This document shows positions 23,981-63,363 of a DNA stretch of 64,000 bases, in pieces. The notes below the pieces were generated by a model. It was not told the origin of the DNA. It saw nothing but the letters and a program-made list of their open reading frames with translations, and ran no database searches. This stretch comes from a virus, in the IMG/VR virus record IMGVR_UViG_3300025109_000004, positions 1 to 64,000 of that record; one strand, given 5' to 3'. The position numbers and the translations under genes were made by a program. Positions within the stretch are counted from its first letter, which is position 1; the number at the start of each line of letters is the position of its first letter.

Positions 23981-24187
23981 TTAACTAATAAAAGAAAATT
24001 GTAATCCATGATCCCCCTTAATAGGAAACGTATGAACAATACTTCCAGATAAAATATCTTGAGGTATCCCTTCAGGAAAAGCCTTACACTTATTCCAATT
24101 TTTTTTACTCAAACGTCTACAATGATCACAGGCTAATTCTGCCATACCACCATTCACAAAAATAGCTCGTCTATTTTTAACTGTCAT
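23981..24187 (-). CDS. Small MuF-associated Cys protein
   Basis: 68 residues with CDHCRRLSKKNWNKCKAFPE, then GIPQDILSGSIVHTFPIKGD and HGLQFSF. Proteins of this pattern commonly follow SPP1 gp7/MuF head genes in phages, and here the ATG overlaps the MuF stop region (ATGA at 24184). Likely a zinc-binding partner of the MuF protein, role unknown. Confidence 0.7.
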   Translation of the reverse strand: MTVKNRRAIFVNGGMAELACDHCRRLSKKNWNKCKAFPEGIPQDILSGSIVHTFPIKGDHGLQFSFIS

Positions 24188-27100
24188 TTAGATGCCCTCA
24201 ACACTTTTATTTTTCTAAATTTTGTTCCAGTAGAAACAAGTCCCGACTCTGGTCCTAATGTAGAAAGTCCCCCATAAAACCACATCACATCATCAATAGG
24301 TATTGTTGCTTCAACAAGTATATGACTATCCCCCACAGCATACCTACCTGCATGGTTTACATCAGTCGACCAATAAGTCCCATTCATTTCTTTTATTTGT
24401 TTAGTTTTCTTCATTGTAGCTATATCATCAGCTTTCATAGAATTCATTCCACGAAATACTTTAAATTCTTTTACCCCCTGTTTCTTTAACCATTCCCTTT
24501 GAACACTTGCTGCTATATGAGATAATTCTAAAACTTCATCTGTTACTTTTCTTGAAGCATTAATCATAGTAAGTAATTGATCTGCTGATCCATTTGACAT
24601 CATTCCTACAACGCCCATATCGCTTGAATAAGTAAATTTACCTGTCTTTGCATAACTCATAGCCGTTGACATAATGGGACTTTGTCCTATAGTTTCCAAT
24701 CCTTGACCACTGGCACTACTCCAACTTTTAAAAGATTTAATAGCTTCCTCAGAAAATTCTTTATATAACATTTTCTTTTCTGCCATTACTGCAACATCCT
24801 CTGCTGCTTCCGTTAATAATTTTGCCCTACCTGTCACAGTTTCTGGAAATTCTATATTGCCAGCATTTCCTAAATTAAAAATCTCATCAGCGTTTTTCTT
24901 CCCCCAATTTTCTGCAACAGAAACATTGCTTGTAAGTTGAGATATATCTGAAGTGGGAAGTACTGTTGAAGGAGTTGGTTTCGGAGCAGTGACCCCTGTT
25001 TGACCACCTCGGATCGGTTTATTTACCATCACTCTTGCTTCTTTTATTTTATCCTCAAACCCCTTCACCAATTTTGGGAATCGTTTTTTAAGTATATTGT
25101 ATTCAGCCCGATTATTTATTGTTAAACTCATAAGTTGAGTAAAAATTTCTGGTTCTTGATAAGGAGTAGTAGCCCAATATTCAATACTATGCCCAGAAGA
25201 CTGACCACCTTTTGATAAAGCTGAAATAATATCTTTTGCAGAACGATCATTTATCCCAAGATTCCTTTGCAAATCTCTGATAGCTACCCTGCCCTCATAT
25301 TCGGTATTGACAATAAATTTCTTAATTCCTTTTCTCGTAGTATCATCAAACTTATCTCCAAAAACTTTTATATATTCCCCAATAACCCTTATCGCATCAG
25401 GATCATAGAAAGCATTTTGTCCGGACATCTTCACAAGAGTATCTCTCAATTTTGTATCCGACATTTTATTTAATTGTTTTAATCTATTTTGACTATATAT
25501 CTTCCACTTTTTTAAATCCTTTTTAGTCTCTTTAACTATCTCCTTGCTTAATTTCCTTATCTCTTTTCCAAAATCTCCTGTTTTAGAAAACCATGCTGAT
25601 CGGGAGGTACCAAAAAAATTATTTGGTTTTTTAGAAAACATATTATCAAGAAAATGTCCATACTCATGTGTTGAAGTTCTGTCTGCAGTTACGCGAGACA
25701 TATGAGTAACTTTTTCCTGTGGGTGATAATAAGAATTTTTGCTATCAGGCAAATCTCTCTTAACCCCTTTCGGAATCGGTCCTCTGGCAACAATCTGCTG
25801 CAATTCATTATCGGCTTGTTTATATTGTTCTATTAATATTCTTCTTTCTGCAGCACTTATGCCTTTTGCCTTCTTGAGCCTTGTTTCAAAAATCTTCATC
25901 GGCTCTTTATAATCAGCTGTAGGATCTATCGGAACAGATCCAGAGGGAACTATATCATCCAACAATGCTGTATCAACCATCGGAACCAAAGTACACCTAC
26001 ACGATGGATGAATCGGAGGACCATTTACATTACCATAGTCCATCGATAGTTTACCTCCTCGATCACCAGTAACGGTACTGCCCTCTTTTGCAAAAGGGTT
26101 ATCAAGAGGAAAAACCTTACCATCCATCTTACGACAGAATTGACAATTGTGAACAACAATCTTGTTTGCCGTATAACTATGATCCTCCTCAACCTCAAGA
26201 TTATATACCGGCTGAGTCCTTCTCACCTTCCATTTCTTTACTGACTTGACTTCTATATCAATAAAGCAACTCTGTTGTTCAATAGCTTCCTCTAATCTAA
26301 TTGCGCACGATGAAAAATTATTTATAATATCATTCTGTTTAAAATGTAATATCTGTCCTGTAAAAACCTGACTTAATTCTCTATCTCTTTTTCTAGTACT
26401 AATATCTGTATGGAAATAATCACCATCAGCCTCAATTATGATATTGTAATCAGGAAGAAAAAAGTCAACCCAAAATCTCCTCTTACCATTATTATAATAT
26501 TTTTGAGGTTCAAAATTTATGCTTTCCTTTTCCAAAAACCACCTGACCTTTTTCTCAAGATAAGAATTGCCTAAATGATTTTTTCCTCTATTAATAAAAG
26601 CAATTTTTAAAGCAGCATCATGTCTTTCTTTATTTTTCCATCCCCAATCAGGTTGCTTTGCAAGTTCCCTATTCTGCTTCACTTTCATCTTCCATGAAGG
26701 GGAACCTTTTTTATAAACTTCTTTGTTCGTCTTTGAAATCTTATCTTTGAAATCTTGCTGAAATTTTTCATCTTCCCATTTTATATCAAAAGCCTTTCTC
26801 ATCTTTTTTGTTTTCTTATATTTTCGATTATCCTCAGCAAGTTTTTCTTTCTGTTTTGGATCAGACCATCTAACTTTATTTGAATTCTGAGCATTACAAG
26901 AATAAGAACAATATTTTTTATCAATAGGAATTAAAGTATTACACTCTCTGCAAGGATGAGCTATATAAACTATCTTATCTCCCTGCTTAATTTTATCTGC
27001 TCTCTTCCATTCTCCATTAACAAGTATGGGATGATTTGCTGTACAAGTTAATCCTTTACCTCTACGAGAATTCCCCAAATTAATTCTCACAAACTTCCCA

Positions 27101-27996
27101 ACAAAATTACTTCTCTTTAAACCTATTACTTTTCTATAACGATCTTTATGAGTAAGTACTTTGTCCCCAACTTCAATATCCTGAATAGGAACAGAACTAT
27201 TCTTTGTCTGTACTCTTGTACCAGCAGGAAAACAAACCCTTTCGTCAAGTGCGGTGACCCATTCTTTACCTGTTACAACCCCGCTCTGTTTGTATGCCTC
27301 TATGGCTCCCTCATTTGCTGCCCGTGTAGTTTCAGTTCTCGCAATCTGCCGAGCCTTAACATCTGACATATTTTCAAACTGGTCCTTCACCCGATTTCTT
27401 AACTGAGTAATACTCTCTCCATTCTCTACCCCTACCGCAAGAGCATTCCTAATTCTTTCCTCAGCTGAGTTCATTACGCTATTGGCAAGCTTGATACTGT
27501 TCTCTGCAACGAACTGGGTCATCAATGGGTTATCTATAGCGAAAGAACCAATAAACTCTGCCTGCTCACCTCCAACTATGGTCTGAAGTTGAGCCATAGT
27601 CCGAGCACCGTTCTCAGCAGTGACTTCCTTCATGAACTCTTGACCTTCCTCTCTTAATCTTTTCGTCCACTCCCTGTTGCTGAACATCCAATTATCAAAC
27701 TGATCTTTTGTTACCATTACCTCATACGAAGTGCCTTTAGCATCTCCGTATACAAATCTCTTTTTCATCCTCCCCAACATCTGCTTACCCATATCAAGAA
27801 ACATCTTCGATAATACTTTCCGAAACTTTTCAGCATTTCCGATATTAGCTTTAAAGAAATCCATCCACCATCTGATCTGCTCCCTACGAGATAGCTTCTC
27901 ATTCTCTTTCAGAAGAATATCAAGGCACAGATCCATAGCCAGAAGTCCCGCTAGATCGTATTGAATGGTATTCAGCTGTTGTGTTTGAAGATTCAT
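24184..27996 (-). CDS. MuF head protein with intein, metallopeptidase and ART-like domains
   Basis: 1270 residues. Residues 1-254 and 618-680 form the SPP1 gp7/MuF domain (ARQIARTETTRAANEGAIEA, WVTALDERV, then CQFCRKMDGKVF and PPIHPSCRC). An intein occupies 255-617. Residues 757-957 contain a metallopeptidase-like region: HEYGH (777-781) inside STHEYGHFLDNMF, with a candidate third ligand in SIEYWATTPYQEPE. The C-terminal 100 residues (1175-1270) show R-G (Arg1182, FKVFRGMN), YWST (1208-1211) and ESG...TGTKF (Glu1250), the R-S-E order of ADP-ribosyltransferases. MuF proteins enter the capsid, so this may be injected. The ART catalytic Glu position is ambiguous. Confidence 0.9.
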   Translation of the reverse strand: MNLQTQQLNTIQYDLAGLLAMDLCLDILLKENEKLSRREQIRWWMDFFKANIGNAEKFRKVLSKMFLDMGKQMLGRMKKRFVYGDAKGTSYEVMVTKDQFDNWMFSNREWTKRLREEGQEFMKEVTAENGARTMAQLQTIVGGEQAEFIGSFAIDNPLMTQFVAENSIKLANSVMNSAEERIRNALAVGVENGESITQLRNRVKDQFENMSDVKARQIARTETTRAANEGAIEAYKQSGVVTGKEWVTALDERVCFPAGTRVQTKNSSVPIQDIEVGDKVLTHKDRYRKVIGLKRSNFVGKFVRINLGNSRRGKGLTCTANHPILVNGEWKRADKIKQGDKIVYIAHPCRECNTLIPIDKKYCSYSCNAQNSNKVRWSDPKQKEKLAEDNRKYKKTKKMRKAFDIKWEDEKFQQDFKDKISKTNKEVYKKGSPSWKMKVKQNRELAKQPDWGWKNKERHDAALKIAFINRGKNHLGNSYLEKKVRWFLEKESINFEPQKYYNNGKRRFWVDFFLPDYNIIIEADGDYFHTDISTRKRDRELSQVFTGQILHFKQNDIINNFSSCAIRLEEAIEQQSCFIDIEVKSVKKWKVRRTQPVYNLEVEEDHSYTANKIVVHNCQFCRKMDGKVFPLDNPFAKEGSTVTGDRGGKLSMDYGNVNGPPIHPSCRCTLVPMVDTALLDDIVPSGSVPIDPTADYKEPMKIFETRLKKAKGISAAERRILIEQYKQADNELQQIVARGPIPKGVKRDLPDSKNSYYHPQEKVTHMSRVTADRTSTHEYGHFLDNMFSKKPNNFFGTSRSAWFSKTGDFGKEIRKLSKEIVKETKKDLKKWKIYSQNRLKQLNKMSDTKLRDTLVKMSGQNAFYDPDAIRVIGEYIKVFGDKFDDTTRKGIKKFIVNTEYEGRVAIRDLQRNLGINDRSAKDIISALSKGGQSSGHSIEYWATTPYQEPEIFTQLMSLTINNRAEYNILKKRFPKLVKGFEDKIKEARVMVNKPIRGGQTGVTAPKPTPSTVLPTSDISQLTSNVSVAENWGKKNADEIFNLGNAGNIEFPETVTGRAKLLTEAAEDVAVMAEKKMLYKEFSEEAIKSFKSWSSASGQGLETIGQSPIMSTAMSYAKTGKFTYSSDMGVVGMMSNGSADQLLTMINASRKVTDEVLELSHIAASVQREWLKKQGVKEFKVFRGMNSMKADDIATMKKTKQIKEMNGTYWSTDVNHAGRYAVGDSHILVEATIPIDDVMWFYGGLSTLGPESGLVSTGTKFRKIKVLRASK
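26146..27234 (-). mobile_element. Intein with Vsr-like endonuclease in the MuF gene
   Basis: 363 residues, beginning CFPAGTRVQTKNS (Cys1) and ending DHSYTANKIVVHN with Cys as the next residue, i.e. complete splice junctions of a class 1 intein. Block B is TCTANHPILVNGEW. Between the Hint halves lie a Cys4 knuckle (CREC...CSYSC), basic helices, and WVDFFLPDYNIIIEADGDYF followed by His, a PD-(D/E)xK/Vsr-like (edxHE type) endonuclease signature. Excision rejoins ALDERV to CQFCRK, an uninterrupted MuF motif. Should be able to home into the intein-free gene. Confidence 0.9.
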
Positions 27997-49594: not shown

Positions 49595-50164
49595 ATGAAA
49601 TATTATGAAGAATACAAAGTCAACATTCCAGAAGGTCAGTCAGGGGATTTTAAAATCCAAAAATTTATAGTTAATAAAAAAGATGCTTTTAGTTTTAATA
49701 TTTCAAATATGTTTCAAAGAAGTATTGAACCGGGAACTTATACAAAATTGGTCGCGACCAATAGACTTATTATGTCTGATACACCAGCAGAAATTTCTGA
49801 TCATTTGGAAATTATTTATCAAGCTAAAGGGAATGTTTTGATTAATGGTTTAGGAATAGGAATGGTTGTGATAGTATGTGCGAGAAAGAAAGAAGTTAAA
49901 AAAATTATAGTTAATGAAATATCTGAAGATGTAATTAAATTGGTTGCTCCATTTTTAAAATTCAAGAAAAAAATACAGATTAACCATATTGATGCTTTTG
50001 ACTATAAACCAAATGGAATTAGATTCAACACAGTATGGCATGACATTTGGGATGAAATCTGTGAAGATAATAATGATGAGATGAGTAAACTCTGCAGAAG
50101 GTATGGGAGATGGTTACAAAAACCTCATTGGCAGAAATGCTGGGGAAGATACCAATGGAGATAA
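49595..50164 (+). CDS. Phage SAM-dependent methyltransferase-like protein
   Basis: 189 residues. Core motif NVLINGLGIGMVVIVCARKK binds SAM, then KIIVNEISEDVIKLVAPFLK and RFNTVWHDIWDEICEDNNDE. It ends in KPHWQKCWGRYQWR. I recognise this layout from class I methyltransferase-like phage proteins. The N-terminal EGQSGDFKIQKFIV element is also found, truncated, after the MerR-like gene at 51752. Substrate unknown. Confidence 0.7.
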   Translation: MKYYEEYKVNIPEGQSGDFKIQKFIVNKKDAFSFNISNMFQRSIEPGTYTKLVATNRLIMSDTPAEISDHLEIIYQAKGNVLINGLGIGMVVIVCARKKEVKKIIVNEISEDVIKLVAPFLKFKKKIQINHIDAFDYKPNGIRFNTVWHDIWDEICEDNNDEMSKLCRRYGRWLQKPHWQKCWGRYQWR

Positions 50165-50352: not shown

Positions 50353-50757
50353 ATGGCAAAATGGGTAAAATGGGGAATTTCACCAGAGGGATATCATAAT
50401 TTGATATTAGAACTGGTAAAGAAGATCAAGGAAACAGAAAGGAAGTTTTCAAAAGTTTATGGCATACCAAGGGGAGGATCCATCATTGCGGTTTATCTTT
50501 CTCATTATCTTAATATTCCAATAGCAGATATTGTTTTTGATCAAACAACTCTTATAGTAGATGATATAGCGGATACAGGAAAAACTTTGAAGCCTTACAG
50601 CGAAGCATTCTTTACAGCCACCCTTCACTACAAATCACGAAGTATTGTTACTCCTGATATCTACATCAAGAAAGTTGAGAACAAAGATTGGATAGTTTAC
50701 CCCTATGAGATGAGTAGTGAGATCCCAAACAGGGAGCTACCAAATAAACCAACATAA
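50353..50757 (+). CDS. Phosphoribosyltransferase-like protein
   Basis: 134 residues. TLIVDDIADTGKTLKPYSEA is the PRPP-binding loop of type I phosphoribosyltransferases, with KVYGIPRGGSIIAVYLSHYL as the upstream hinge motif. The C-terminus is short. Could link nucleobases to ribose phosphate; with a 7-deazaguanine pathway nearby, a salvage role for a modified base is possible but unproven. Confidence 0.75.
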   Translation: MAKWVKWGISPEGYHNLILELVKKIKETERKFSKVYGIPRGGSIIAVYLSHYLNIPIADIVFDQTTLIVDDIADTGKTLKPYSEAFFTATLHYKSRSIVTPDIYIKKVENKDWIVYPYEMSSEIPNRELPNKPT

Positions 50758-51292: not shown

Positions 51293-51886
51293 ATGAAAGT
51301 ATTTACACCATCAGAAATCAATAAAATTATTCCGGCTCTTGGGAAAAAACAAATTAATGACCTTGTTGATAAAGGTCTAATTGAGCCTTGGAAAAAATCA
51401 ACAGGGCAAGGGGTCACGAGATTATATGACAAGAAAAACATAATTGATTTGCTTATTTGCTGGCAAATAAGGGGAATGATGCCACAAAAACAGATTAAAG
51501 AATTTATAAGTTATGCTCATGTTGACCCAAAAATAATATTTATTATTTCTAAGCGGACTGGAGATAAATGGTATTTTCATAGGATAGCCGAGGGATTTGA
51601 TGAGCAGTTCTTTCAGGCTTGTCTGTTTTGGGACTATGACAGTGAAAGAAAGTACACGCCTAAAAAAATGGACACAGCTTCAATAGTTGTCAATGTTAAA
51701 TCGACTAGAGAGTTTGTCGAAAAATATTTCGCAGCAAGGAGGAAAATAACCATGAGAACAATCTACAATCAAAACAAAGTTAAAATTCTGGAAGGACAAT
51801 CGGGAGAGTGGAAGGTTAGTAAGTTCCTAAAGAAGGTAAGCAAAGAAAAGAAATATACATGCATGTCCAACATGCGATTCTTATAA
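51293..51886 (+). CDS. MerR-like regulator fused in frame to a methyltransferase fragment
   Basis: 197 residues. Residues 1-70 are a MerR-type winged helix (FTPSEINKIIPALGKKQIND, then GQGVTRLYDKKNIIDLLICW). From residue 154 there is an internal ATG (51752) with an excellent SD (AAGGAGGAAAATAACC), and the sequence KVKILEGQSGEWKVSKFLKK matches the start of the methyltransferase-like gene at 49595 (EGQSGDFKIQKF). So the 3' part is a truncated copy of that gene, joined in frame or translated separately as 44 residues. Confidence 0.7.
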   Translation: MKVFTPSEINKIIPALGKKQINDLVDKGLIEPWKKSTGQGVTRLYDKKNIIDLLICWQIRGMMPQKQIKEFISYAHVDPKIIFIISKRTGDKWYFHRIAEGFDEQFFQACLFWDYDSERKYTPKKMDTASIVVNVKSTREFVEKYFAARRKITMRTIYNQNKVKILEGQSGEWKVSKFLKKVSKEKKYTCMSNMRFL

Positions 51887-52882: not shown

Positions 52883-54394
52883 ATGGAGTTTAGAATAAGG
52901 AAAGTCGATTCCCAGATTGAGAAGAGAATCCTCATGGCAATGATCGTATCAAAAGATTTCCTTCAGGAAATCATGCCACTGATAAATCCCAATTACTTTG
53001 CCAATAGTTATGCGAGAAGAGTAGCATCATGGGTGATTGAGTTCTGGGGGGCATATGAGACAAACCCCTTTGATAATATCCAAGATATATACCTGAGTAA
53101 AAAAGAAAAATTAAAAGAACCTGAACAGGCTCTTATTGAAACTCTGCTGATGGATATCTCTGAGCAGTATGGGAAGGATGATAAGATCAATGTTGACTAT
53201 ATGGTTGATAAGACCATTGATTATTTCAAGAGGAGGGAGCTGGAACTGATATCTGCCAACATCAAGGACTCACTCACAAGAGATAATCTGGTGGATGCAG
53301 AGAAGGCTGTTATACAGTTTAAGAAAGTGGGGAAGCTAACCTCCACATGGATTGATCCATTCAGTGAGGAGAGCGTCGAAAAAGTATTTCGGGATGAGGA
53401 TAGTAGTTTTTTTAAATTTCCGGGAGAGCTGGGGGAGTTTCTTGGTCCATATGAGAGGGGATGGTTGGTTGGAATAGCGGGTCCTTACAAGAGGGGGAAG
53501 TCGTGGCTTTTGCAGGAATATGCCATCATGGGAATATTACAGGGGTTAAGGGTGGTGTTCTTCTCACTTGAGATGACCGAGAAGCAAGTACTTGAGAGAT
53601 TATATAAACGAATAACCGGATTGGGAACAAAAGAGGGAGGTGATCTGCTATACCCAACATTTGATTGCCAGAGGAATCAGTTTGGTAATTGTAAATCTGA
53701 GAATAGGAAAAGCTCCGAGAAACTTTTTGCCAGCAAAGAATCTCCAAAACCAAAGTTCAAAGATGCCCCAGAGGACTATATACCATGTGACTATTGTCGA
53801 ACGAAGAATAGGGAGCAGTATCAGTTTGCCACATGGTTCAAAGTATTAAATAAAGATCCTTGGAGTCATGGTGTGGTGGCTGATAAGATTAAAGTATTCC
53901 AAACATACTATAAACATTTATTCAAAATAAAAATCTTTCCAAAGTTTAGTGCTAATATGGCTGATATCGATCATAACCTTAATATATTAGAAGCAACTCA
54001 GGGATTTACTGCTGATATGATTATTCTTGACCATATGGATATCACAAAACCAGAGGATAGTTCTTTAACTGGAATACAAAAGGAAGATGAGACATGGATG
54101 TCAGCAGGGAGAATAGCGGGGGAAAGACATGCTCTGTTTGTTGTGGGTACTCAGCTGACTAAAGAGGCTCTGGATGCTTATATCGTTACCCATAAACACA
54201 ATGCACGATGGGCAGGAAAGCTAGGGCATGTCGAGGCGATGCATACCCTGAATCAGATCCCAGATGAGAAACAAGATGGTCTGATGAGGATAGGTACTAT
54301 GATCCATAGGCATATGGAATTCTATGAGGGGGAGACGGTAAAGATATTACAGGACATAAAAACAGGGCAGGTTAATCTTGGCTCTTTCAAGTAA
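52883..54394 (+). CDS. DnaB-like replicative helicase
   Basis: 503 residues. N-terminal helical domain (QIEKRILMAMIVSKDFLQEI), then RecA-like core: GWLVGIAGPYKRGKSWLLQE (Walker A), RVVFFSLEMTEKQVLERLYK (H1a/arginine region), and DMIILDHMDITKPEDS (Walker B). An insertion of about 60 residues between these holds four Cys (CQRNQFGNC and CDYC), a probable zinc site absent from bacterial DnaB. Would unwind DNA with the primase. The following gap holds the second repeated promoter. Confidence 0.85.
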   Translation: MEFRIRKVDSQIEKRILMAMIVSKDFLQEIMPLINPNYFANSYARRVASWVIEFWGAYETNPFDNIQDIYLSKKEKLKEPEQALIETLLMDISEQYGKDDKINVDYMVDKTIDYFKRRELELISANIKDSLTRDNLVDAEKAVIQFKKVGKLTSTWIDPFSEESVEKVFRDEDSSFFKFPGELGEFLGPYERGWLVGIAGPYKRGKSWLLQEYAIMGILQGLRVVFFSLEMTEKQVLERLYKRITGLGTKEGGDLLYPTFDCQRNQFGNCKSENRKSSEKLFASKESPKPKFKDAPEDYIPCDYCRTKNREQYQFATWFKVLNKDPWSHGVVADKIKVFQTYYKHLFKIKIFPKFSANMADIDHNLNILEATQGFTADMIILDHMDITKPEDSSLTGIQKEDETWMSAGRIAGERHALFVVGTQLTKEALDAYIVTHKHNARWAGKLGHVEAMHTLNQIPDEKQDGLMRIGTMIHRHMEFYEGETVKILQDIKTGQVNLGSFK

Positions 54395-54891: not shown

Positions 54892-55815
54892 ATGCTGACA
54901 GTAACCAAGATATTTCGTGACATTTCCTATGGTCATCACCTGCCGGAGTATGATGGCAAGTGCAAAACCCCTCATGGGCACAATGCGACATTGGAAGTAG
55001 AGGTGGATGGAGTATGGGAAAATGGAGAGAAGGAAGGTATGGTATGTGATTTTAGTATTTTGAAAAGAATTATTAATAAGTATGTGATTGATATACTTGA
55101 TCATCAGAACATCAATGATTTAAATTTATGTGATTATGGGGGAGAAGTTTTTCAAACTATGCGTAGGATGATCAAGATGCCCACAGCCGAGAACATGGTC
55201 AAGTGGATTATAGAAGTATTAAGGAAACATTTTGGTGATCACCTCATCAGGGTCCGGTTGTATGAGACCTCCGATAGCTATGCCGAGTGGTATCGAGAAA
55301 ATATAATTAACGAAGAAGTAAAGAGAAATGAAGAGGATTATTATTGCTCTGCAGTTGGTCATGATGAAATCGATTGTGGAGACGAGAATGAGTGTGGTGA
55401 TTGTGAGCATTATATAGAAGTATCAAAGCAGAAGAAAACCCCCGGTGGTGAACATTTAAAGCATCCAGTTATTAATAATATTTTTATACAAGCAAAAAAT
55501 GATCCTAATATCGATAGTATTTGTACTGCTGCAGATAATGATGAAGTCGATTGTGATGGAATATTCTGCAAGGACTGTAAATGGAATAAAGAGTTCTCAT
55601 ACATCGATTTTAAAATCAAACCCAAAGATACCAGAGTCCAACTGAAGAACCTGCGAGACGGGGCTATATTTGAAAACGAAAATAGTTGTAGATTAGTAAA
55701 AACAAGAATAATAAAAGATAACTCTATTCAGTGCATTTCTTTACATGAAGGAAGCATTTGTCATTACCCAATCGATTACAAACCTCTTGTGAGGGAGATC
55801 ATAATCGATGGCTGA
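54892..55815 (+). CDS. queD: QueD-like 6-carboxytetrahydropterin synthase with Cys-rich C-terminal extension
   Basis: 307 residues; QueD alone is about 120-150. Residues 1-135 are QueD: GHHL (His16), CKTPHGHN (Cys24, His28, His30) and ILDHQNIND (Asp70/His71), converting dihydroneopterin triphosphate to CPH4. Residues 145-240 hold two similar Cys-rich units: CSAVGHDEIDCGDENECGDC and CTAADNDEVDCDGIFCKDC. The last 60 residues are another small beta module. SD AGGAGGAAAGAACT; overlaps QueE by 8 nt. Confidence 0.85.
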   Translation: MLTVTKIFRDISYGHHLPEYDGKCKTPHGHNATLEVEVDGVWENGEKEGMVCDFSILKRIINKYVIDILDHQNINDLNLCDYGGEVFQTMRRMIKMPTAENMVKWIIEVLRKHFGDHLIRVRLYETSDSYAEWYRENIINEEVKRNEEDYYCSAVGHDEIDCGDENECGDCEHYIEVSKQKKTPGGEHLKHPVINNIFIQAKNDPNIDSICTAADNDEVDCDGIFCKDCKWNKEFSYIDFKIKPKDTRVQLKNLRDGAIFENENSCRLVKTRIIKDNSIQCISLHEGSICHYPIDYKPLVREIIIDG

Positions 55816-56494
55816 GAAAATAAAAATCTACTCAATATTCAATTCCATAGATGGGGAGGTCAACAGGTTTCATCAGGGAGGCTTCACCACGTTCATCAGA
55901 TTTGCCGGTTGCAATTTAAAATGCTCCTACTGCGACACCCTGTACGCTCAGGATCCGAACTGCGGGAAGGAGATGACGGTTGCCCAGATCATAAAGGAAG
56001 TAAAAACGTTCGGGTGTAAAAAGGTCACCATCACTGGGGGCGAGCCGTTGATGCAGATAGATGGGTTCATAGAATTATGCCAGCAATTACAAGCTAGAGA
56101 GTATGATATCTCTGTTGAAACAAATGGGACGATCGATGGTGAGGAATTCATACAATGTATTGACTGCTGGGTGGTGGACTACAAACTACCAAGTTCAGGG
56201 GTGAAAGAGAAACAGATCAATATGAATTTTTTGGAGGATCTGAATGATCAGGATTTTGTAAAGTTTGTCATAACATGCAAGGGGGATTATGTAATAGCAA
56301 AAAAGGCGATGAAAAAAATTATAAAAAATAACAGCAATTTTGATCCTCCTTACTTTGCTTTCTCCCCCATGCATGGTAGTCTGGAGCCACAGACCCTTGT
56401 CGAGTGGATACAGAAGGACAAACTGTTTGATAATATTATAATCAATCTTCAACTCCATAAATATATCTGGAAAAATGCGGAAAAGGAGGTGTGA
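55808..56494 (+). CDS. queE: QueE-like 7-carboxy-7-deazaguanine synthase
   Basis: 228 residues. FIRFAGCNLKCSYCDTLYAQ carries the radical-SAM CxxxCxxC cluster, then TITGGEPLMQIDGFIELC, SVETNGTI and WVVDYKLPSSGVKEKQ. QueE turns CPH4 into 7-carboxy-7-deazaguanine using a 4Fe-4S cluster and SAM. GG in the GGEPL loop is present. Overlaps QueD in an operon and ends next to the third repeated promoter. Confidence 0.9.
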   Translation: MAEKIKIYSIFNSIDGEVNRFHQGGFTTFIRFAGCNLKCSYCDTLYAQDPNCGKEMTVAQIIKEVKTFGCKKVTITGGEPLMQIDGFIELCQQLQAREYDISVETNGTIDGEEFIQCIDCWVVDYKLPSSGVKEKQINMNFLEDLNDQDFVKFVITCKGDYVIAKKAMKKIIKNNSNFDPPYFAFSPMHGSLEPQTLVEWIQKDKLFDNIIINLQLHKYIWKNAEKEV

Positions 56495-56498
56495 AAAT

Positions 56499-56532
56499 AT
56501 TTTTTCATGGTTTGGCAAAACTGTGGTATAAT
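56499..56532 (+). promoter_or_regulatory. Repeated promoter, copy 3 (histone-like/QueC/FolE/DpdA operon)
   Basis: A 34-bp block ending in TATAAT (56527-56532), with TTTTTTCATGGTTTGG in front of GCAAAAC. The three copies are nearly identical upstream of the -10. It begins 5 nt after the QueE stop and drives the genes from 56597. Confidence 0.75.
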
Positions 56533-56596
56533 GGTATCATAAAAAGTTGAGAGTGTTTCACAAAAAACAAAACCAAAACCAAAGGAGGGCAGCATC

Positions 56597-57145
56597 ATGA
56601 AAGCAACATTAAATGGAGAAAAAGTTGAACTGGCAAGAGAGGTTCCGAACAAAGAGATCAAGGCAATATCAACAAAGCTGAACAAGACCCACGGCACGAA
56701 GTTAAAGATCGTTGCCATATCAACCATCGCGATGATCGAAGCGTTCATCCTCAAGATTGAGGAGCTGGATACCAGCAAGGCAAAAATCAATAAAGAGTTC
56801 TCCGATTTTTACAATGGGCTCTTTCCAAAAGCAGACAAGAAAAAACCTGCTGCAAAGAAAGAACCTGCCAAGAAAAAATCCGCTGCAAAGAAAGAACCGG
56901 CAAAGAAAAAAGAATCAAAAGGTCCTGGAGTGATTGCCTCCATTCTTGAATTCATCAAAAGCGGTCCAATCACAAAAGAGAAAATTCTGACCAAATTGGA
57001 AAAGCGTTTCCCTGATCGTGATACTGTCGGTATGGAAAAAACCATCAAGGCACAAATCAGCGGTAAGAAAAGACCTCTCCGGATGGAGAAGGAAAAGAAA
57101 GTCAAATTTGTCATCAGTGACAAGGGAGCTTATTCAATAAAATAA
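56597..57145 (+). CDS. Histone-H1-like basic protein
   Basis: 182 residues. Residues 1-80 helical; 80-115 a Lys/Ala/Pro-rich linker made of AAKKEPAKKKSA-type repeats, as in histone H1-like and HU-tail proteins; 115-182 a small winged-helix-like end (ASILEFIKSGPITKEKILTK, later KFVISDKGAYSIK). Probably binds DNA and compacts or regulates it. First gene of the transcript that makes QueC, FolE and DpdA. Confidence 0.65.
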   Translation: MKATLNGEKVELAREVPNKEIKAISTKLNKTHGTKLKIVAISTIAMIEAFILKIEELDTSKAKINKEFSDFYNGLFPKADKKKPAAKKEPAKKKSAAKKEPAKKKESKGPGVIASILEFIKSGPITKEKILTKLEKRFPDRDTVGMEKTIKAQISGKKRPLRMEKEKKVKFVISDKGAYSIK

Positions 57146-57155
57146 AAGGAGGGTT

Positions 57156-57821
57156 ATGAAAACAAAAGCATTGGTACTTTTATCAGGGGGGCAGGATTCA
57201 GCAACCTGCCTCTCTTTGGCAAAACAAACTTATGATGAAATTTATACGTTGGCTTTTAATTATGGACAACGTCATCAAAGAGAACTTACCTGCTCCGCAA
57301 AACTTTCTCAGATTGCGGAGGCTCAACTTCATTTCACATTATTTGTTCCCACCCTTCAACATCTGGGGGGATCGGCTTTGGTTGAAACAGATTCCACCAT
57401 CGATAAACCCCATTCAAAAAATAAAAATTTACCGGCATCATTTGTCCCGGGACGAAATTATATTTTTCTTGGGTTTGCTGCAGCGAAAGCCTATCAACTG
57501 GATATTCATGATTTGTATACAGGAGTATGCGAAACAGATTATTCTGGCTATCCGGATTGTAGAAATGATTCAATAAAAGCTATTTCTTATGCCCTCAATC
57601 TCTGTCTTGATTATCAAATTATTATCCACACTCCTCTCATGAATATAAACAAAGCCCAAACAGTACAGATGATGGATAATCTTGGAACTCTTGATTGGTA
57701 CAAACATACCCATACCTGTTACGAGGGTCAATATCCCCCCTGTGGTAAATGTCCTGCCTGTGCAATAAGGGCTAACGGATTTAAAGAAGCAGGTATCAAA
57801 GATCCTCTGGTGGAGGGTTGA
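57156..57821 (+). CDS. queC: QueC-like 7-cyano-7-deazaguanine synthase
   Basis: 221 residues. ALVLLSGGQDSATCLSLAKQ is the PP-loop ATP site; LAFNYGQRHQRELTCSAKLS and VPGRNYIFLGFAAAKAYQLD are family signatures; CYEGQYPPCGKCPACAIRAN is the zinc site. It converts 7-carboxy-7-deazaguanine to preQ0. No amidotransferase (Gat) domain is attached, so preQ0 is the expected end product, not archaeosine-type dG+. SD AGGAGGGTT. Confidence 0.92.
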   Translation: MKTKALVLLSGGQDSATCLSLAKQTYDEIYTLAFNYGQRHQRELTCSAKLSQIAEAQLHFTLFVPTLQHLGGSALVETDSTIDKPHSKNKNLPASFVPGRNYIFLGFAAAKAYQLDIHDLYTGVCETDYSGYPDCRNDSIKAISYALNLCLDYQIIIHTPLMNINKAQTVQMMDNLGTLDWYKHTHTCYEGQYPPCGKCPACAIRANGFKEAGIKDPLVEG

Positions 57822-57824
57822 CTA

Positions 57825-58397
57825 TTGACTAAAGAAACTTATGATGAAATTTATGCTTATTCAATAGATTGTATATGGAAGATGATTGAACTTGTTGGGG
57901 AAGATCCAGAACGGGAAGGGTTAAAGGATACCCCAAAACGAGTTGCAAAGGCATGGGAGTATATATTTGCAGGATATTCTCAAGATCCTAAAGATGTCAT
58001 GACTACATTTGATTCTGATGGTTATGATGAAATAGTTCTATTAAAATCAATAGAGGTTTATTCGATTTGCGAACATCATCTCATGCCCTTTTTTGGTAAA
58101 GCCCATATCGCCTACATCCCTGATAAAAAAATTATCGGGATATCCAAACTCGCCCGACTCATTGATATCTATGCGAGACGAATGCAGATACAGGAACGGA
58201 TCGGGGATCAGGTCACCACTGATTTGATGATTTATTTACAACCGCAGGGAGCTGCCTGTATTATTGAAGCAAATCATCTCTGTATGAGGATGCGGGGGGT
58301 GGAGAAACAAAATTCAACTATGGTCACCTCCTCCCTCAAAGGAGTATTCATGGAAGATGGTCGGGCGCGAGAGGAGTTGATGAGATTGATAAAGTGA
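57825..58397 (+). CDS. folE: GTP cyclohydrolase I
   Basis: 190 residues from a TTG at 57825, 3 nt after QueC. REGLKDTPKRVAKAWEYIFA, SICEHHLMPFFGKAHIAYIP (Cys and His zinc ligands), GISKLARLIDIYARRMQIQE, and EANHLCMRMRGVEKQNSTMV. These are the full family signatures. Makes dihydroneopterin triphosphate, the substrate for QueD. Its stop overlaps the GTG start context of the transglycosylase gene. Confidence 0.95.
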   Translation: MTKETYDEIYAYSIDCIWKMIELVGEDPEREGLKDTPKRVAKAWEYIFAGYSQDPKDVMTTFDSDGYDEIVLLKSIEVYSICEHHLMPFFGKAHIAYIPDKKIIGISKLARLIDIYARRMQIQERIGDQVTTDLMIYLQPQGAACIIEANHLCMRMRGVEKQNSTMVTSSLKGVFMEDGRAREELMRLIK

Positions 58398-59323
58398 AAA
58401 TTTTACTTTCACGGAGGGAAAAATTGAAAAAGAAAAAACTTAATATCTTTTTAGATTCAGGAGCATTCTCTGCATGGGCAAAAGGAGAAGAAATAAACCT
58501 GAAAGATTATATTGCCTTCATCAAGAAGTATGAAAAGTATATCGAGGTGTATGCCAACCTCGATGTGATCGGTGATCCCAAAGCCACATTAAAAAATCAA
58601 AAGAAGATGGAAAAAGCCGGACTATCTCCCCTCCCCTGTTTTCATTATGGAGAAGACATTTCTTATCTCAAAGACTATATCAAAAATTATGAGTACGTCA
58701 GTCTTGGAGGCATGGTCCCCATTTCTTCAGCCGATTTAATAAAATGGTTGGACAAAATTTTCGGTGAATACATTTGTAACACCAAAGACCACAAACCAAA
58801 AGTCAGAGTGCATGGATTCGGAATGACCTCATTCGATCTGATGTTGAGGTATCCTTGGTATTCAGTTGATAGTACTTCATGGGTGATGACCGGACGGTTC
58901 GGGGGAGTGATGGTCCCTAAATTCAGGAAGGGAAAATACTCTTATGAAACTTCTCCTTTAAAAGTTGATGTTTCCACCCGCTCTTCCTCAGTCAAGAAAG
59001 AGGGTCAGCACATCACAACATTTTCTGAGTTGGAGCGGCAGCAGATCCTGAAATATTTTACTCATAAGGGATATAAATTAGGAGTTTCCAAATTCAAATC
59101 GGTTAAAGAAAAAGGGTATACGTTAAAAGACAATGAGTGTTGGAATGGGAAAGCTAATAAGAATGGTGATAAGGAGGTGGAGGAAGTTATCGAAAAAGGT
59201 ATCTGTAATCAGTATAAACAGAGGGATGAATTAAACATAATTTATTTTTTAGATTTAGAAAAAAATATGCCTACCTATCCCCAGCCCTTCAAACCACAAA
59301 GAATAGGGGGACTGGGATTGTGA
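58394..59323 (+). CDS. dpdA: DpdA-like tRNA-guanine transglycosylase-family enzyme acting on DNA
   Basis: 309 residues from the GTG at 58394, or 299 from a TTG at 58424 which has the better SD (GGAGGGAAAAA). NIFLDSGAFSAWAKGEEINL contains the acidic catalytic segment of the TGT fold (DSGAFS); YVSLGGMVPISSADLI and RVHGFGMTSFDLMLRYPWYS are typical of phage DpdA. The enzyme would replace guanine in DNA with preQ0 made by the neighbours. It is shorter than bacterial tRNA TGT and matches no tRNA enzyme pattern beyond the fold. Confidence 0.85.
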   Translation: MKILLSRREKLKKKKLNIFLDSGAFSAWAKGEEINLKDYIAFIKKYEKYIEVYANLDVIGDPKATLKNQKKMEKAGLSPLPCFHYGEDISYLKDYIKNYEYVSLGGMVPISSADLIKWLDKIFGEYICNTKDHKPKVRVHGFGMTSFDLMLRYPWYSVDSTSWVMTGRFGGVMVPKFRKGKYSYETSPLKVDVSTRSSSVKKEGQHITTFSELERQQILKYFTHKGYKLGVSKFKSVKEKGYTLKDNECWNGKANKNGDKEVEEVIEKGICNQYKQRDELNIIYFLDLEKNMPTYPQPFKPQRIGGLGL

Positions 59324-59505: not shown

Positions 59506-59741
59506 AAAAGATATACGATTGAGAGAGAGCTATTTGAATTGAAAGCAAATCGGTTAATTTCTTTTTTCAATAGGAGGACGGTTATAATAGTTATTGAAGT
59601 GAGATTAACAAAATGAAAATATATTTTGCCTCAGTAGATACAATTAGACTCACAACTTTTTATTATATAAAATCATCGAAAATTATTGTTCAATTAAGGA
59701 GGGCACTCATACATGAAAACAAAAACACAAGAACTGCTTGA
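59474..59741 (+). pseudogene. Two short MKIYLA-type remnants in the gap before the clamp gene
   Basis: Frame 59474-59542 (TTG) reads MKLYLAGRNFEKDIRLRESY then LN. Frame 59613-59741 (ATG) reads MKIYFASVDTIRLTTFYYIK and overlaps the clamp start. Both share the K-[IL]-Y-[LF]-A start with the gene at 59320, so they look like duplicated, decayed copies. A candidate -10 box TATAAT sits at 59583-59588 without a good -35. Confidence 0.45.
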
Positions 59742-60759
59742 CATACTTACCAACCTCAAACCGGGATTGGCACAAAAGGATATTGTGGAGCAGATGACCC
59801 ACTTCATTTTTACCGGCTCCAACGCTGTCACCTACAATGACCAGATTTATATCTCTCACCCATTTGAAACTCCATTCAAAACATCGGTTCCAGCACAAGA
59901 ACTCTTGCAACTACTTCAGAAGGTTGAATCAAAAAATACCATCCTAAAAATGGAAGAAAACCAGTTGAAAGTCAAGTGTGGGAAGGTATCTGCAGGGTTC
60001 TCTACCCTTGTGGAAGATCAGGTCTTTAAACTCCTCCCCGCCCTTGAAAAACAGCTGAGGAAATCAAAATGGGACCGACTTCCAGAACAGGTGCAGGAAG
60101 GATTGAAACTTACCATGTTCTCGACAACACAAGATATGATGAAGTATAGTCAGGGATTGACCTGTGTCTATGCAAATAAAAACTCGATTACTTCAAGTGA
60201 CGGACACAGGGCTGGGATCTTCCAACTTGATGACAGTATCAAACATTCCTTTTTGTTGACCGCTATCACGATCCCTGAACTTCTTAAGCTTGATCCCATA
60301 AAATACTGTCTCACCGACTCATGGATAAATTTTAAAAATAAAGAGGGAACGGTGTTTAGTGTTAAAAAGATCGTGGTGGAGGAGAATGTGCTCAAGAATG
60401 TGGATAAGTTCTTTGACTCGTTCAAGAAGAAAAAGAGGAAGGTGAAACTGCCGCAGGATAATCTGTTGAAGGCTGTTGATGTGGGGGCTATCATAGAGCA
60501 AAGTCAAGTGGATATGGAAAAGCGGATAAAAATCAGTATCAGCCCTGATGAACTGATTGTCGGGTCAAAGCGGGAGACGGGGTGGATAGAAACATCAGTG
60601 GAGATTGATTATGAGGGAAAGCCGGTGGAGTTCCAGATCCACCCCGAGTACTTCTCCAATATCCTTAACCATGCAACAACTATTTATATCGGGGAGGACA
60701 AGGTATTCTTTGAGTCGAGTAACTTCAAACATCTCATCTGTATGTATATGGAGGAGTAA
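59713..60759 (+). CDS. Sliding clamp (DnaN-like)
   Basis: 348 residues, slightly short of the 366-residue bacterial clamp. Three alpha/beta repeats: KTQELLDILTNLKPGLAQKD, the central FSTTQDMMKYSQGLTCVYAN with SITSSDGHRAGIFQLDDSIK (a highly conserved SDG/RA segment), and the end EFQIHPEYFSNILNHATTIY then FKHLICMYMEE. Would encircle DNA and tether the polymerase encoded next. SD AAGGAGGGCACTCATAC. Confidence 0.85.
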   Translation: MKTKTQELLDILTNLKPGLAQKDIVEQMTHFIFTGSNAVTYNDQIYISHPFETPFKTSVPAQELLQLLQKVESKNTILKMEENQLKVKCGKVSAGFSTLVEDQVFKLLPALEKQLRKSKWDRLPEQVQEGLKLTMFSTTQDMMKYSQGLTCVYANKNSITSSDGHRAGIFQLDDSIKHSFLLTAITIPELLKLDPIKYCLTDSWINFKNKEGTVFSVKKIVVEENVLKNVDKFFDSFKKKKRKVKLPQDNLLKAVDVGAIIEQSQVDMEKRIKISISPDELIVGSKRETGWIETSVEIDYEGKPVEFQIHPEYFSNILNHATTIYIGEDKVFFESSNFKHLICMYMEE

Positions 60760-60762
60760 TTT

Positions 60763-63363
60763 TTGACAACCAGAAAACTTTTTGACATAAAAAAAATGAA
60801 ACCCGCTGATCAGATCATCACCGAGCCCCATTGTCTCAAGTGTGGTCTTGATAGAAAATGTCAAACCCCGAAAATGAAGTGGACGGGAAAGGGAAGGCAG
60901 AAAGTTCTAATATGGGGGGAGGCTAATGGTGCTACTGAGGACGAGTCGGGTATCCAATTCAGTGGTGATGCTGGGGATGTTCTGAGAACCGAGTTGAAAA
61001 AGAATGGTCTTGATCTTGACAAGGATTTCTGGAAGGACAACTCCCTTGGATGCAGACCAATGAACCCGAAAAAAACTGCCAACAGACCCCCCACAGATGC
61101 CGAGATAAAATACTGTAGACCCAGAATCAGAAAAGTTGTGGAGGAACTAAAGCCGGAGCAGATTTGGTTATTTGGTGGCATGGCGGTAAAGAGTTTCCTT
61201 GGGCAGAAGATCAGTGATTGTGCTATCAACAGATGGAGGGGGCTCTGTATCCCGGACAGGGATGTTAATGCATGGGTGCTCCCGATGTTCCACCCCTCCT
61301 ACCCAATGAGGGACTCAAAAAATTATAATCTTAAATCGGTCTTTGAGAGGGATATAAAATTTGCCTGTTTACAGATCGGAAAAGAGTTCCCGGAGTTTAA
61401 GGATGAGTGGAAGCAGGTTAAAGTATTAAAAACATTTGATAAGGTATGTAATGCCCTTGAAGATGTATTACATTGGCAACCAAAGTATTTTTTCTTTGAC
61501 TATGAGACCACCGGGATCAAACCCCATAAAGAAGGAAGTAAGATAGCGTCTATTTCCTTTACCTCATCAATTACCCCCTTACATGCCTATAGTTTCCCCT
61601 ACGAGTTCAATAATTACTGGACTCCTCTCCAGTTACGACAAATTAGAAAACGATGGATCAAGATTCTCAAACACCCAAAGATAAAAAAAGTGGCTCAGAA
61701 CTCCAAGTTTGAGGATAGCTGGTCGAGAGTGATCTTTAATACTGTTCCCGATCCTTGGCACTGGTGTACTATGAACTGCTCTCATGTGCTTGACAACCGG
61801 CAATATTTCTCAAGCCTTACATTTCAACTCTACATCCAATTCGGTATTAATCCATATGACAAAGAGATGAAGAAATATCTTGAGAGCAAGGATTCAACGG
61901 GGTTCAATAGAGTAATGGAAGCCCCTCTTGATAAACTGCTGGGGTATGGGGGGATGGATAGTCTTGGTGGGTATAAACTATTTCTTAAACAGCAACAGGA
62001 ACTAAAAGGGAAAAAGAAAAAAGCATTTATGTTTTTCATGGATGGGTTGGAGGTATTCTCCGATATACAGGAAAATGGGATCCCTGTAGATGACCTGTAT
62101 TATGAGAGAAAAAGAAAGAGGCTGACAAAACAGATCACAGAAATGGGGAATGAACTGGTTAATGGAGTGGAGGGAAAAAAGTTCAAAGAGAGGGAGAACA
62201 GGGAACTTAAACTTACGTCAAATAAGGATATGGGTATTTTATTATATGAGGTTTTAAAGTTTCCTGTAATTAAGACACAAGATGGAAAAGGAAAGAACTA
62301 CTGCGTCGATGTAAATGCTCTGGAGCAGACCGATTCTGATTTCACGAGAAAACTATTGAGAAAGAGGAAATTGGAAAAAGTTATGGGGACATATATTGCC
62401 CAGTTCCAGAGGGAATCTGTTGGCGATATCATGTACCCGATATTCGACCTCCATACCACGAGGACATACAGACCCAGTGGTAGCAAACCAAACTTCACAA
62501 ACATTCCAAGACGTGATAAGGAAGCAAAAAATATCTGTCGCGGTGGGATTATTCCAAGCAAGGGAAATAAACTTGGGGAGTTTGACTTTAAGGGGATAGA
62601 GGTAAATATTTCCTGTTGTTACCACCACGATCCTACCATGATAAATTATGTAACTAATCCAAAATCAGATATGCATAGGGATGGAGCATGTGATATCTGG
62701 CAACTAACTAAAAAAGAAATTACAGATGATATACGTGATAGGGTAAAGAATGATTGGACGTTCCCCCAATTCTATGGTGATTGGTACATGCAATGTGCAG
62801 AATCATTAATAAAAGATTGTTTCAATCTAAAGACCACATCAGGTATTATTTTAGAAGATCATATAGCAGGATTTAATAAGAAATCATCATGGGTGACTGA
62901 TAAAGAGTATTTTGAAAACCACTGTAAGGAAGCAGAGAGGATAATGTGGGAAGAGCGGTTCCCGGTCTACGCCCAATGGAAAAAAGATATTAATAAATTC
63001 TACAGAAAGCATGGTTATATTGAAACCCATATGGGATTTCGATACACGGGGTATATGGGCAGGAACGATGTTACCAACTATCAGACTCAAGGAACGGCTT
63101 TCCACTGTCTGCTCTGGACTCTGATACAGGTGAACGAGATATCCAAAAAGGAAAAATGGGGAAGCAAGATTATCGGACAGATATATGATAGTATTGTTTT
63201 TGATCTTGTGCCTGATGAGCAGGATCATATTATAGAAACGGTCAATAGGATTGGTACGAAGGAGATTAGGAAAGAGTTTGATTGGATCATCGTGCCATTG
63301 AGTATCGACTTTGAGGTAACCCCGATTGATGGGGCATGGAACGAGAAGGAGAAAGTAAGATGA
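60763..63363 (+). CDS. Uracil-DNA glycosylase fused to family A DNA polymerase
   Basis: 866 residues from a TTG. N-terminal 215 residues: Fe-S type UDG fold (CLKCGLDRKC; WGEANGATEDESGIQFSG; GCRPMNPKKTANRPPTDAEI then YC; MFHPSYPMR). Then a 3'-5' exonuclease: FFFDYETTGIKPHKEGS (ExoI), QNSKFEDSW (ExoII), YGGMDSLGGYKLF (ExoIII). Polymerase: LGEFDFKGIEVNISCCYH (motif A), RDRVKNDWTFPQFYGDWYM (B), GQIYDSIVFDL (C). Motif C has YDS where most family A enzymes have HDE. Probably the replicative enzyme, with built-in uracil removal. Confidence 0.88.
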   Translation: MTTRKLFDIKKMKPADQIITEPHCLKCGLDRKCQTPKMKWTGKGRQKVLIWGEANGATEDESGIQFSGDAGDVLRTELKKNGLDLDKDFWKDNSLGCRPMNPKKTANRPPTDAEIKYCRPRIRKVVEELKPEQIWLFGGMAVKSFLGQKISDCAINRWRGLCIPDRDVNAWVLPMFHPSYPMRDSKNYNLKSVFERDIKFACLQIGKEFPEFKDEWKQVKVLKTFDKVCNALEDVLHWQPKYFFFDYETTGIKPHKEGSKIASISFTSSITPLHAYSFPYEFNNYWTPLQLRQIRKRWIKILKHPKIKKVAQNSKFEDSWSRVIFNTVPDPWHWCTMNCSHVLDNRQYFSSLTFQLYIQFGINPYDKEMKKYLESKDSTGFNRVMEAPLDKLLGYGGMDSLGGYKLFLKQQQELKGKKKKAFMFFMDGLEVFSDIQENGIPVDDLYYERKRKRLTKQITEMGNELVNGVEGKKFKERENRELKLTSNKDMGILLYEVLKFPVIKTQDGKGKNYCVDVNALEQTDSDFTRKLLRKRKLEKVMGTYIAQFQRESVGDIMYPIFDLHTTRTYRPSGSKPNFTNIPRRDKEAKNICRGGIIPSKGNKLGEFDFKGIEVNISCCYHHDPTMINYVTNPKSDMHRDGACDIWQLTKKEITDDIRDRVKNDWTFPQFYGDWYMQCAESLIKDCFNLKTTSGIILEDHIAGFNKKSSWVTDKEYFENHCKEAERIMWEERFPVYAQWKKDINKFYRKHGYIETHMGFRYTGYMGRNDVTNYQTQGTAFHCLLWTLIQVNEISKKEKWGSKIIGQIYDSIVFDLVPDEQDHIIETVNRIGTKEIRKEFDWIIVPLSIDFEVTPIDGAWNEKEKVR

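What the first reader, a model, noticed from the sequence alone, without database searches (positions are those of the whole stretch)
54892..59323. Complete preQ0 pathway with a DpdA-like transglycosylase: predicted 7-deazaguanine phage DNA
Seen: QueD, QueE, QueC, FolE and a DpdA-like enzyme in order, all with active-site motifs intact, and no Gat-QueC or QueF. Known: phages with this set carry 7-deazaguanines in DNA (dPreQ0 when QueC ends the pathway), giving resistance to restriction enzymes. Inference: guanine is replaced by preQ0 in this phage's DNA.
Basis: partly seen in the sequence, partly recalled or inferred. Interest (0 to 1): 0.8.

Follow-up and report, generated by a model that had tools for sequence, protein, structure and literature searches.

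The report
Phage preQ0-DNA modification gene cluster
An uncultured bacterial virus carries a complete gene set for making the modified base preQ0 and swapping it into its own DNA, most likely to blunt bacterial restriction enzymes; this is a new member of a known kind of phage, with two extra genes that recur beside the set in its relatives and have no assigned role.

Summary
QueD, QueE, QueC, FolE and a phage DpdA are intact and in that order at 54892-59323 of a 69,055-base IMG/VR contig. No QueF above cut-off, GATase_6 domain or tRNA-type TGT was found anywhere on the contig. The same block, inside the same replication module (DnaB, clamp, polymerase), recurs in 22 related uncultured contigs and, reordered, in CAjan and 9g. 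The DpdA is of the CAjan/9g type. The best prediction is therefore partial replacement of G by dPreQ0 after replication, as measured in CAjan and Rosebush (about 30% of G). "Guanine is replaced" overstates it: the contig strongly avoids GGCC (19 seen, 101 expected) and CCWGG (11 against 77), so modification probably does not shield every site. A protein of unknown family with a predicted winged helix sits in the queE-queC slot and recurs in most relatives. A purine phosphoribosyltransferase, separate here, is fused to FolE in 14 of 31 FolE-bearing relatives, which suggests recycling of the guanine that DpdA releases. Verdict: new member of a known kind. Identity and extent of the base need mass spectrometry.

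The parts
54892..55815 (+). queD: 6-carboxytetrahydropterin synthase (residues 1-142) plus a Cys-rich C-terminal extension found in no relative here
   Evidence: Pfam PTPS 5.7e-28, PHROG 2389, CxxxHGH motif aligned to solved PTPS; extension alone matches only itself among 4,824 ORFs of related loci
55808..56494 (+). queE: 7-carboxy-7-deazaguanine synthase (radical SAM)
   Evidence: NCBIfam QueE 3.6e-51, PHROG 2076 3.4e-40, best solved match 7-carboxy-7-deazaguanine synthase 5tgs; overlaps queD by 8 bases
56597..57145 (+). 'K' protein: helical N-terminal region, Lys/Ala-rich linker, C-terminal predicted winged helix; unknown family, conserved in the queE-queC slot of relatives
   Evidence: no Pfam/PHROG/NCBIfam match; orthologues in 11 other contigs; N-terminal profile retrieves the slot ORF in 9 of 11 further relatives; AlphaFold residues 110-182 confident, best Foldseek hits mostly winged-helix proteins but best E only 0.09
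57156..57821 (+). queC: 7-cyano-7-deazaguanine (preQ0) synthase
   Evidence: Pfam QueC 3.6e-70, NCBIfam TIGR00364 above cut-off, aligned end to end with solved QueC 3bl5, 1e-55
57825..58397 (+). folE: GTP cyclohydrolase I
   Evidence: Pfam GTP_cyclohydroI 2.8e-72, solved homologue 1wm9 2.5e-57 with zinc ligands kept
58394..59323 (+). dpdA (type 1 phage DpdA): predicted DNA guanine transglycosylase; likely start TTG 58424
   Evidence: PHROG 887 5.8e-59; family profile finds CAjan and 9g DpdA (themselves members of the profile) and nothing in nt-1 or CP220; 37-38% identity to CAjan/9g, invariant D21/D57/H84/H140/D159; model pLDDT 88.5 matches viral queuine transferases
50353..50757 (+). purine phosphoribosyltransferase; probable guanine salvage partner (fused to FolE in many relatives)
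   Evidence: Pfam Pribosyltran 1.1e-8, solved purine phosphoribosyltransferases, PRPP motif VDDIADTGKT; PRT-FolE fusion in 14 viral contigs and 2 MAG contigs
59713..60759 (+). sliding clamp, downstream of dpdA as in CAjan and 9g
   Evidence: PHROG 947 1.2e-25; same neighbourhood in L005/L006
60763..63363 (+). family-4 uracil-DNA glycosylase fused to family-A DNA polymerase
   Evidence: Pfam UDG 1e-19 and DNA_pol_A 1.2e-34
52883..54394 (+). DnaB-like replicative helicase, upstream neighbour of the cluster in relatives
   Evidence: PHROG 19 1.1e-39; same position in most loci

Best explanation
The cluster is a self-sufficient phage DNA-modification module. FolE, QueD and QueE turn GTP into 7-carboxy-7-deazaguanine and QueC turns that into preQ0 (steps inferred from enzyme families with intact active sites). 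DpdA then exchanges guanine bases in newly replicated phage DNA for preQ0, by the base-exchange chemistry of transglycosylases (inferred from the CAjan/9g family). The result is partly modified DNA, probably up to tens of per cent of G in a preferred sequence context, that many restriction enzymes cut poorly (inferred from CAjan and Rosebush). A plausible addition, suggested but not shown, is that the guanine released by DpdA is recycled to GMP by the phage's purine phosphoribosyltransferase.
For: All five enzymes intact, tightly packed with short overlaps. No QueF, GATase_6 or TGT on the 69-kb contig. Order QueD-QueE-...-FolE-DpdA next to DnaB, clamp and polymerase kept in 22 related contigs, 13 of them with QueC in the same slot, and a reordered version in CAjan and 9g. 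DpdA is of the CAjan/9g type, with the His that DpdA2 lacks. CAjan and Rosebush with the same gene set carry dPreQ0 at about 32% and 28% of G, and deleting dpdA in CAjan abolishes it and restores cutting (PMC6884629). PRT-FolE fusions in 14 of 31 FolE-bearing relatives.
Against: No chemistry has been measured and the virus is uncultured. Strong avoidance of GGCC, CCWGG and AGATCT shows that restriction has shaped this genome, so protection is incomplete or recent; CAjan and 9g also avoid some palindromes, so this does not exclude modification. Foldseek against solved structures gave no significant match for the DpdA model. NCBIfam's bacterial DpdA model matches only weakly (3.6e-5).
Confidence: 0.74

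Rival explanations
1. The DNA base is a 7-deazaguanine other than dPreQ0 (for example dADG, or a derivative made by an unrecognised phage or host enzyme).
For: QueC makes preQ0 through ADG (PMC13329287); Pantoea phage MED16 with only dpdA carries dADG (PMC8306585); nt-1 carries several bases at once; K and the QueD extension have no assigned function.
Against: No GATase_6, QueF or known further enzyme on the contig; the two phages with this exact gene set have dPreQ0 with at most traces of dADG.
Confidence: 0.15
2. Essentially every guanine is replaced.
For: Complete replacement by dADG is reported for Campylobacter phages CP220 and CPt10 (quoted in PMC8306585).
Against: The DpdA profile finds nothing in CP220, and CAjan-type DpdA gives about 30% of G; the contig still avoids G-containing restriction sites.
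Confidence: 0.04
3. The cluster boosts queuosine in host tRNA instead of modifying DNA.
For: The preQ0 pathway is shared with queuosine synthesis; phages without dpdA were suggested to do this (PMC6884629).
Against: No TGT match on the contig, no tRNA gene in the window, DpdA of a phage DNA-modifying type, cluster embedded in the replication module.
Confidence: 0.03
4. The module was acquired recently or is poorly expressed, so the DNA is little or not modified in practice.
For: Marked GGCC/CCWGG avoidance; nt-1 and Dp-1 with full pathways have under 2% of G modified.
Against: All frames intact, strong Shine-Dalgarno before queD, synteny shared across a deeply diverged lineage, which argues for long residence.
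Confidence: 0.04

Closest known systems
Escherichia phage CAjan preQ0/DpdA module (Queuovirinae, Seuratvirus)
   Same: FolE, QueD, QueE, QueC, DpdA without amidotransferase; dpdA next to clamp and DNA polymerase
   Different: gene order inside the block; no K orthologue or phosphoribosyltransferase detected; CAjan carries a putative preQ0 transporter; DpdA only about 38% identical
Mycobacterium phage Rosebush
   Same: same gene set and predicted product (PMC6884629)
   Different: sequence not held here and not compared
Enterobacteria phage 9g dG+ module
   Same: same DpdA type and synteny with clamp and polymerase
   Different: 9g has Gat-QueC and makes dG+; the window has plain QueC without the amidotransferase domain
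Vibrio phage nt-1 (DpdA2) and Campylobacter phage CP220
   Same: 7-deazaguanine phages
   Different: no DpdA match in either with a 22-member profile of this family

Membership tests
Phages with preQ0 pathway plus DpdA (group 2 of PMC6884629) | DpdA plus FolE, QueD, QueE, QueC | tested here: met
Phages with preQ0 pathway plus DpdA (group 2 of PMC6884629) | no QueF/QueF-L or Gat-QueC | tested here: met
   QueF below cut-off (only FolE), GATase_6 absent; contig may be incomplete
Phages with preQ0 pathway plus DpdA (group 2 of PMC6884629) | no ArcS | not tested
   no search with an ArcS model was run; none of the ORFs scanned was annotated so
Phages with preQ0 pathway plus DpdA (group 2 of PMC6884629) | dPreQ0 in virion DNA | not testable with these tools
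   needs LC-MS
Phage DpdA type 1 (9g/CAjan) | sequence family membership | tested here: met
   tblastn to 238 phage records, best E 3e-55; 37-38% identity to CAjan and 9g
Phage DpdA type 1 (9g/CAjan) | conserved His lacking in DpdA2 | tested here: met
   H140 invariant with CAjan and 9g (feature from PMC6884629; equivalence of numbering inferred)
Phage DpdA type 1 (9g/CAjan) | TGT-like TIM-barrel fold | tested here: inconclusive
   confident model matches viral queuine transferases, but no significant solved structure; weak TIM-barrel hits only
tRNA-guanine transglycosylase (TGT) | Pfam TGT domain | tested here: not met
   no match on the contig; all 14 control genomes ring
Gat-QueC dG+ phages | glutamine amidotransferase domain on or near QueC | tested here: not met
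   QueC is 221 aa, PF06508 only

The most novel reading that the evidence does not exclude
The functional module is larger than the known five genes: in this uncultured lineage the preQ0/DpdA machinery includes a dedicated guanine-recycling phosphoribosyltransferase (fused to FolE in many relatives) and a winged-helix DNA-binding protein (K) that helps DpdA find or read its DNA target. In sister phages QueC itself is absent and its slot holds a SAM methyltransferase or a carbon-nitrogen hydrolase, pointing to DNA 7-deazaguanines not yet described.
Probability: 0.3. Interest if true: 0.6.

Novelty: new member of a known kind. Interest (0 to 1): 0.38.

Why it matters
It extends experimentally grounded 7-deazaguanine DNA modification to a diverse, uncultured phage lineage and adds two recurrent candidate partners (K and the FolE-linked phosphoribosyltransferase) to a pathway thought to be complete with five genes. 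The loci without QueC offer concrete leads to further DNA bases.

Tried and rejected
Nearest-isolate search by DNA gave nothing. The window's K protein finds no match in 50,697 phage records or in solved structures by sequence. A larger K alignment was too diverged for a pattern scan. Foldseek of K gave mostly winged-helix folds without significance, and of DpdA only weak TIM barrels in PDB. Cui et al. 2023 and the 2024 review are not held, so the DpdA3/DpdA4, DpdL, DpdM and DpdN families were not tested with reference sequences; what I know of them is from memory. I considered reading restriction-site avoidance as evidence against modification, but CAjan and 9g avoid palindromes too, so it only argues against full protection. 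Host: terminase relatives are spread over unrelated hosts at under 40% identity, so no host is proposed. Rosebush was not held under the two accessions tried.

Full report
WHAT IS THERE. The window is bases 1-64000 of a 69,055-base IMG/VR virus record. ORF calling gives, on the + strand, queD 54892-55815, queE 55808-56494, an unnamed ORF 'K' 56597-57145, queC 57156-57821, folE 57825-58397 and dpdA 58394-59323. The genes overlap or abut (8-base overlap queD/queE, 10 bases K to queC, 3 bases queC to folE, 4-base overlap folE/dpdA), with a Shine-Dalgarno GGAGG before queD. DpdA more likely starts at TTG 58424, 6 bases after a GGAGG, than at the listed GTG; the first 12 residues of the longer form have low model confidence. 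Pfam, PHROGs and NCBIfam agree on the four synthesis enzymes, and PHROGs on DpdA. Alignments to solved QueD-, QueE-, QueC- and FolE-type enzymes keep the catalytic and metal-binding residues.

NEGATIVE CLAIMS. Across the whole contig there is no QueF above its cut-off (the sub-threshold match is FolE, a T-fold relative), no GATase_6 domain and no TGT domain, while control genomes ring as expected. No tRNA gene is in the window. The last 5 kb, outside the window, hold a helicase, an N6/N4 DNA methyltransferase and a clamp-loader subunit. The contig's completeness is unknown, so absence is absence from this record only. ArcS was not searched with its own model.

WHICH DpdA. tblastn of the window DpdA finds 238 phage records, best E 3e-55, all below 60% identity. 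A 22-sequence profile (which includes CAjan and 9g) finds those two at about 1e-100 and nothing in nt-1 (DpdA2) or in CP220. D21, D57, H84, H140 and D159 are invariant across the family including CAjan and 9g; DpdA2 is described as lacking a conserved His (PMC6884629). An AlphaFold model (pLDDT 88.5) matches viral 'queuine tRNA-ribosyltransferases' but no solved structure significantly.

SYNTENY. Scans of IMG/VR with DpdA brought 36 distinct loci. The order QueD - QueE - ... - FolE - DpdA is kept in 22 contigs (several near-identical: L021-L023 with L029, L016 with L017), usually as DnaB - QueD - QueE - K - QueC - (PRT-)FolE - DpdA - clamp - UDG/polymerase, with QueC in its slot in 13. CAjan and 9g show the same neighbours with a different order inside the block: QueE, QueC, QueD, FolE, DpdA, clamp, polymerase. 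Eight loci in bacterial and archaeal MAG contigs carry the same DpdA, mostly with clamp and polymerase next to it, probably phage contigs binned with cells (inference).

MECHANISM. PMC6884629 classes phages with DpdA plus FolE/QueD/QueE/QueC and no amidotransferase as predicted preQ0 (or ADG) phages. CAjan and Rosebush measured 70,628 and 96,530 dPreQ0 per million nucleotides, about 32% and 28% of G, and CAjan without dpdA has none and is cut by restriction enzymes. The window matches this set, so dPreQ0 by post-replicative base exchange is the best prediction. Gene content does not fix the amount: nt-1 and Dp-1, with full pathways, have under 2%. GA and GGC are the reported CAjan sites (cited in PMC8306585).

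EXTENT. The contig holds 19 GGCC against 100.6 expected from its own trinucleotide and dinucleotide counts (z -10.4), 11 CCWGG against 76.6, 0 AGATCT against 16.5 and 2 CCATGG against 16.7. T7, which is unmodified, shows the same for CCWGG (2 against 59.2); CAjan and 9g hardly avoid GGCC or CCWGG but do avoid several six-base palindromes. So this lineage has been under restriction at G-containing sites that modification did not neutralise, or acquired the module after that. Either way the literal claim that guanine is replaced is not supported.

(1) K, 182 aa, 47 basic and 23 acidic residues, matches no curated family. Eleven other contigs carry recognisable orthologues with the FPDRD-type C-terminal domain. 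A profile built only from the first 80 residues of nine K proteins, searched against 4,824 ORFs of all loci, ranks next after the K proteins an ORF upstream of dpdA in L042 and then the ORF in the queE-queC slot of 9 of 11 further loci tested (E from 8e-8 to 0.019), with nothing but identical copies of these in between; L018 and L028 were not retrieved. So K looks like a slot-specific family with a variable C-terminal domain. All K matches from collection scans lie on contigs with DpdA, except L010, a 16.8-kb fragment that has QueD, QueE and QueC. Residues 110-182 are modelled with confidence as helices plus a wing and resemble winged-helix proteins without statistical support. (2) The purine phosphoribosyltransferase at 50353-50757 is separate here, but the same domain is fused to FolE in 14 of 31 FolE-bearing viral contigs, with the PRPP motif intact by pattern in 13, and in two MAG contigs. 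Its nearest solved relatives are purine phosphoribosyltransferases. As DpdA chemistry would release one guanine per exchange, salvage to GMP, feeding GTP to FolE, is the natural reading (inference). A literature search found no description of this fusion, but most subscription papers are not held. CAjan, 9g and most tested relatives without the fusion lack a detectable phosphoribosyltransferase, so it is not essential.

CONCLUSION. Confirmed observation; interpretation partly supported; a new member of a known kind, with two recurrent candidate accessory genes and, in sister phages, replacements of QueC that deserve their own study.

Noticed in passing
L013:6296-7201, L018:6758-7609, L024:8337-9266: QueC is absent from these contigs and its slot holds a class I SAM methyltransferase-like protein (L024: Pfam Methyltransf_23 7e-16) beside intact QueD, QueE, FolE and DpdA: possible carboxy-deazaguanine-derived or methylated DNA base. 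Contigs may be fragments.
   Followed up: partly
L021:8141-9175 (same in L022, L023, L029): QueC absent and a carbon-nitrogen hydrolase (Pfam 4e-10) sits between the K-like gene and folE: another possible variant chemistry.
   Followed up: partly
window 26146-27237 (-), inside ORF 24184-27996: Minor head protein (Mu F-like) is interrupted by an intein with a homing endonuclease region (Pfam Intein_splicing 1.6e-12, PHROG HNH).
   Followed up: partly
L013:2841-4442; L031:8870, L033:9338, L034:3: QueE in L013 carries an apparent intein, and DpdA ORFs of 636-837 aa in L031, L033, L034 may be similarly interrupted.
   Followed up: no
window whole contig; GGCC positions: Extreme avoidance of GGCC and CCWGG; only one GGCC lies between 32,440 and 63,680, yet six fall in 63,681-66,137, next to the DNA methyltransferase gene, suggesting recent acquisition of that end.
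   Followed up: partly
L002:3003-3962 (contig about 66002-66961): N6/N4 DNA methyltransferase (Pfam 4.9e-21) next to a helicase; a second possible layer of DNA modification.
   Followed up: no
window 60763-63363: Family-4 uracil-DNA glycosylase fused to DNA polymerase A; in many relatives the matching region is split into two ORFs; similar near-full-length matches exist in a few phage isolates.
   Followed up: partly
window 49595-50164 and 51293-51886: The N-terminal stretch of the methyltransferase-like ORF (EGQSGDFKIQKF) recurs near the C-terminus of the ORF at 51293-51886 (EGQSGEWKVSKF), suggesting a duplicated or recombined gene piece.
   Followed up: no
L019:3322-4017 and L019:4427-5104; L025:7005 and 7679; L052:6624 and 7295: Two tandem QueC-like ORFs in the same cluster.
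   Followed up: no
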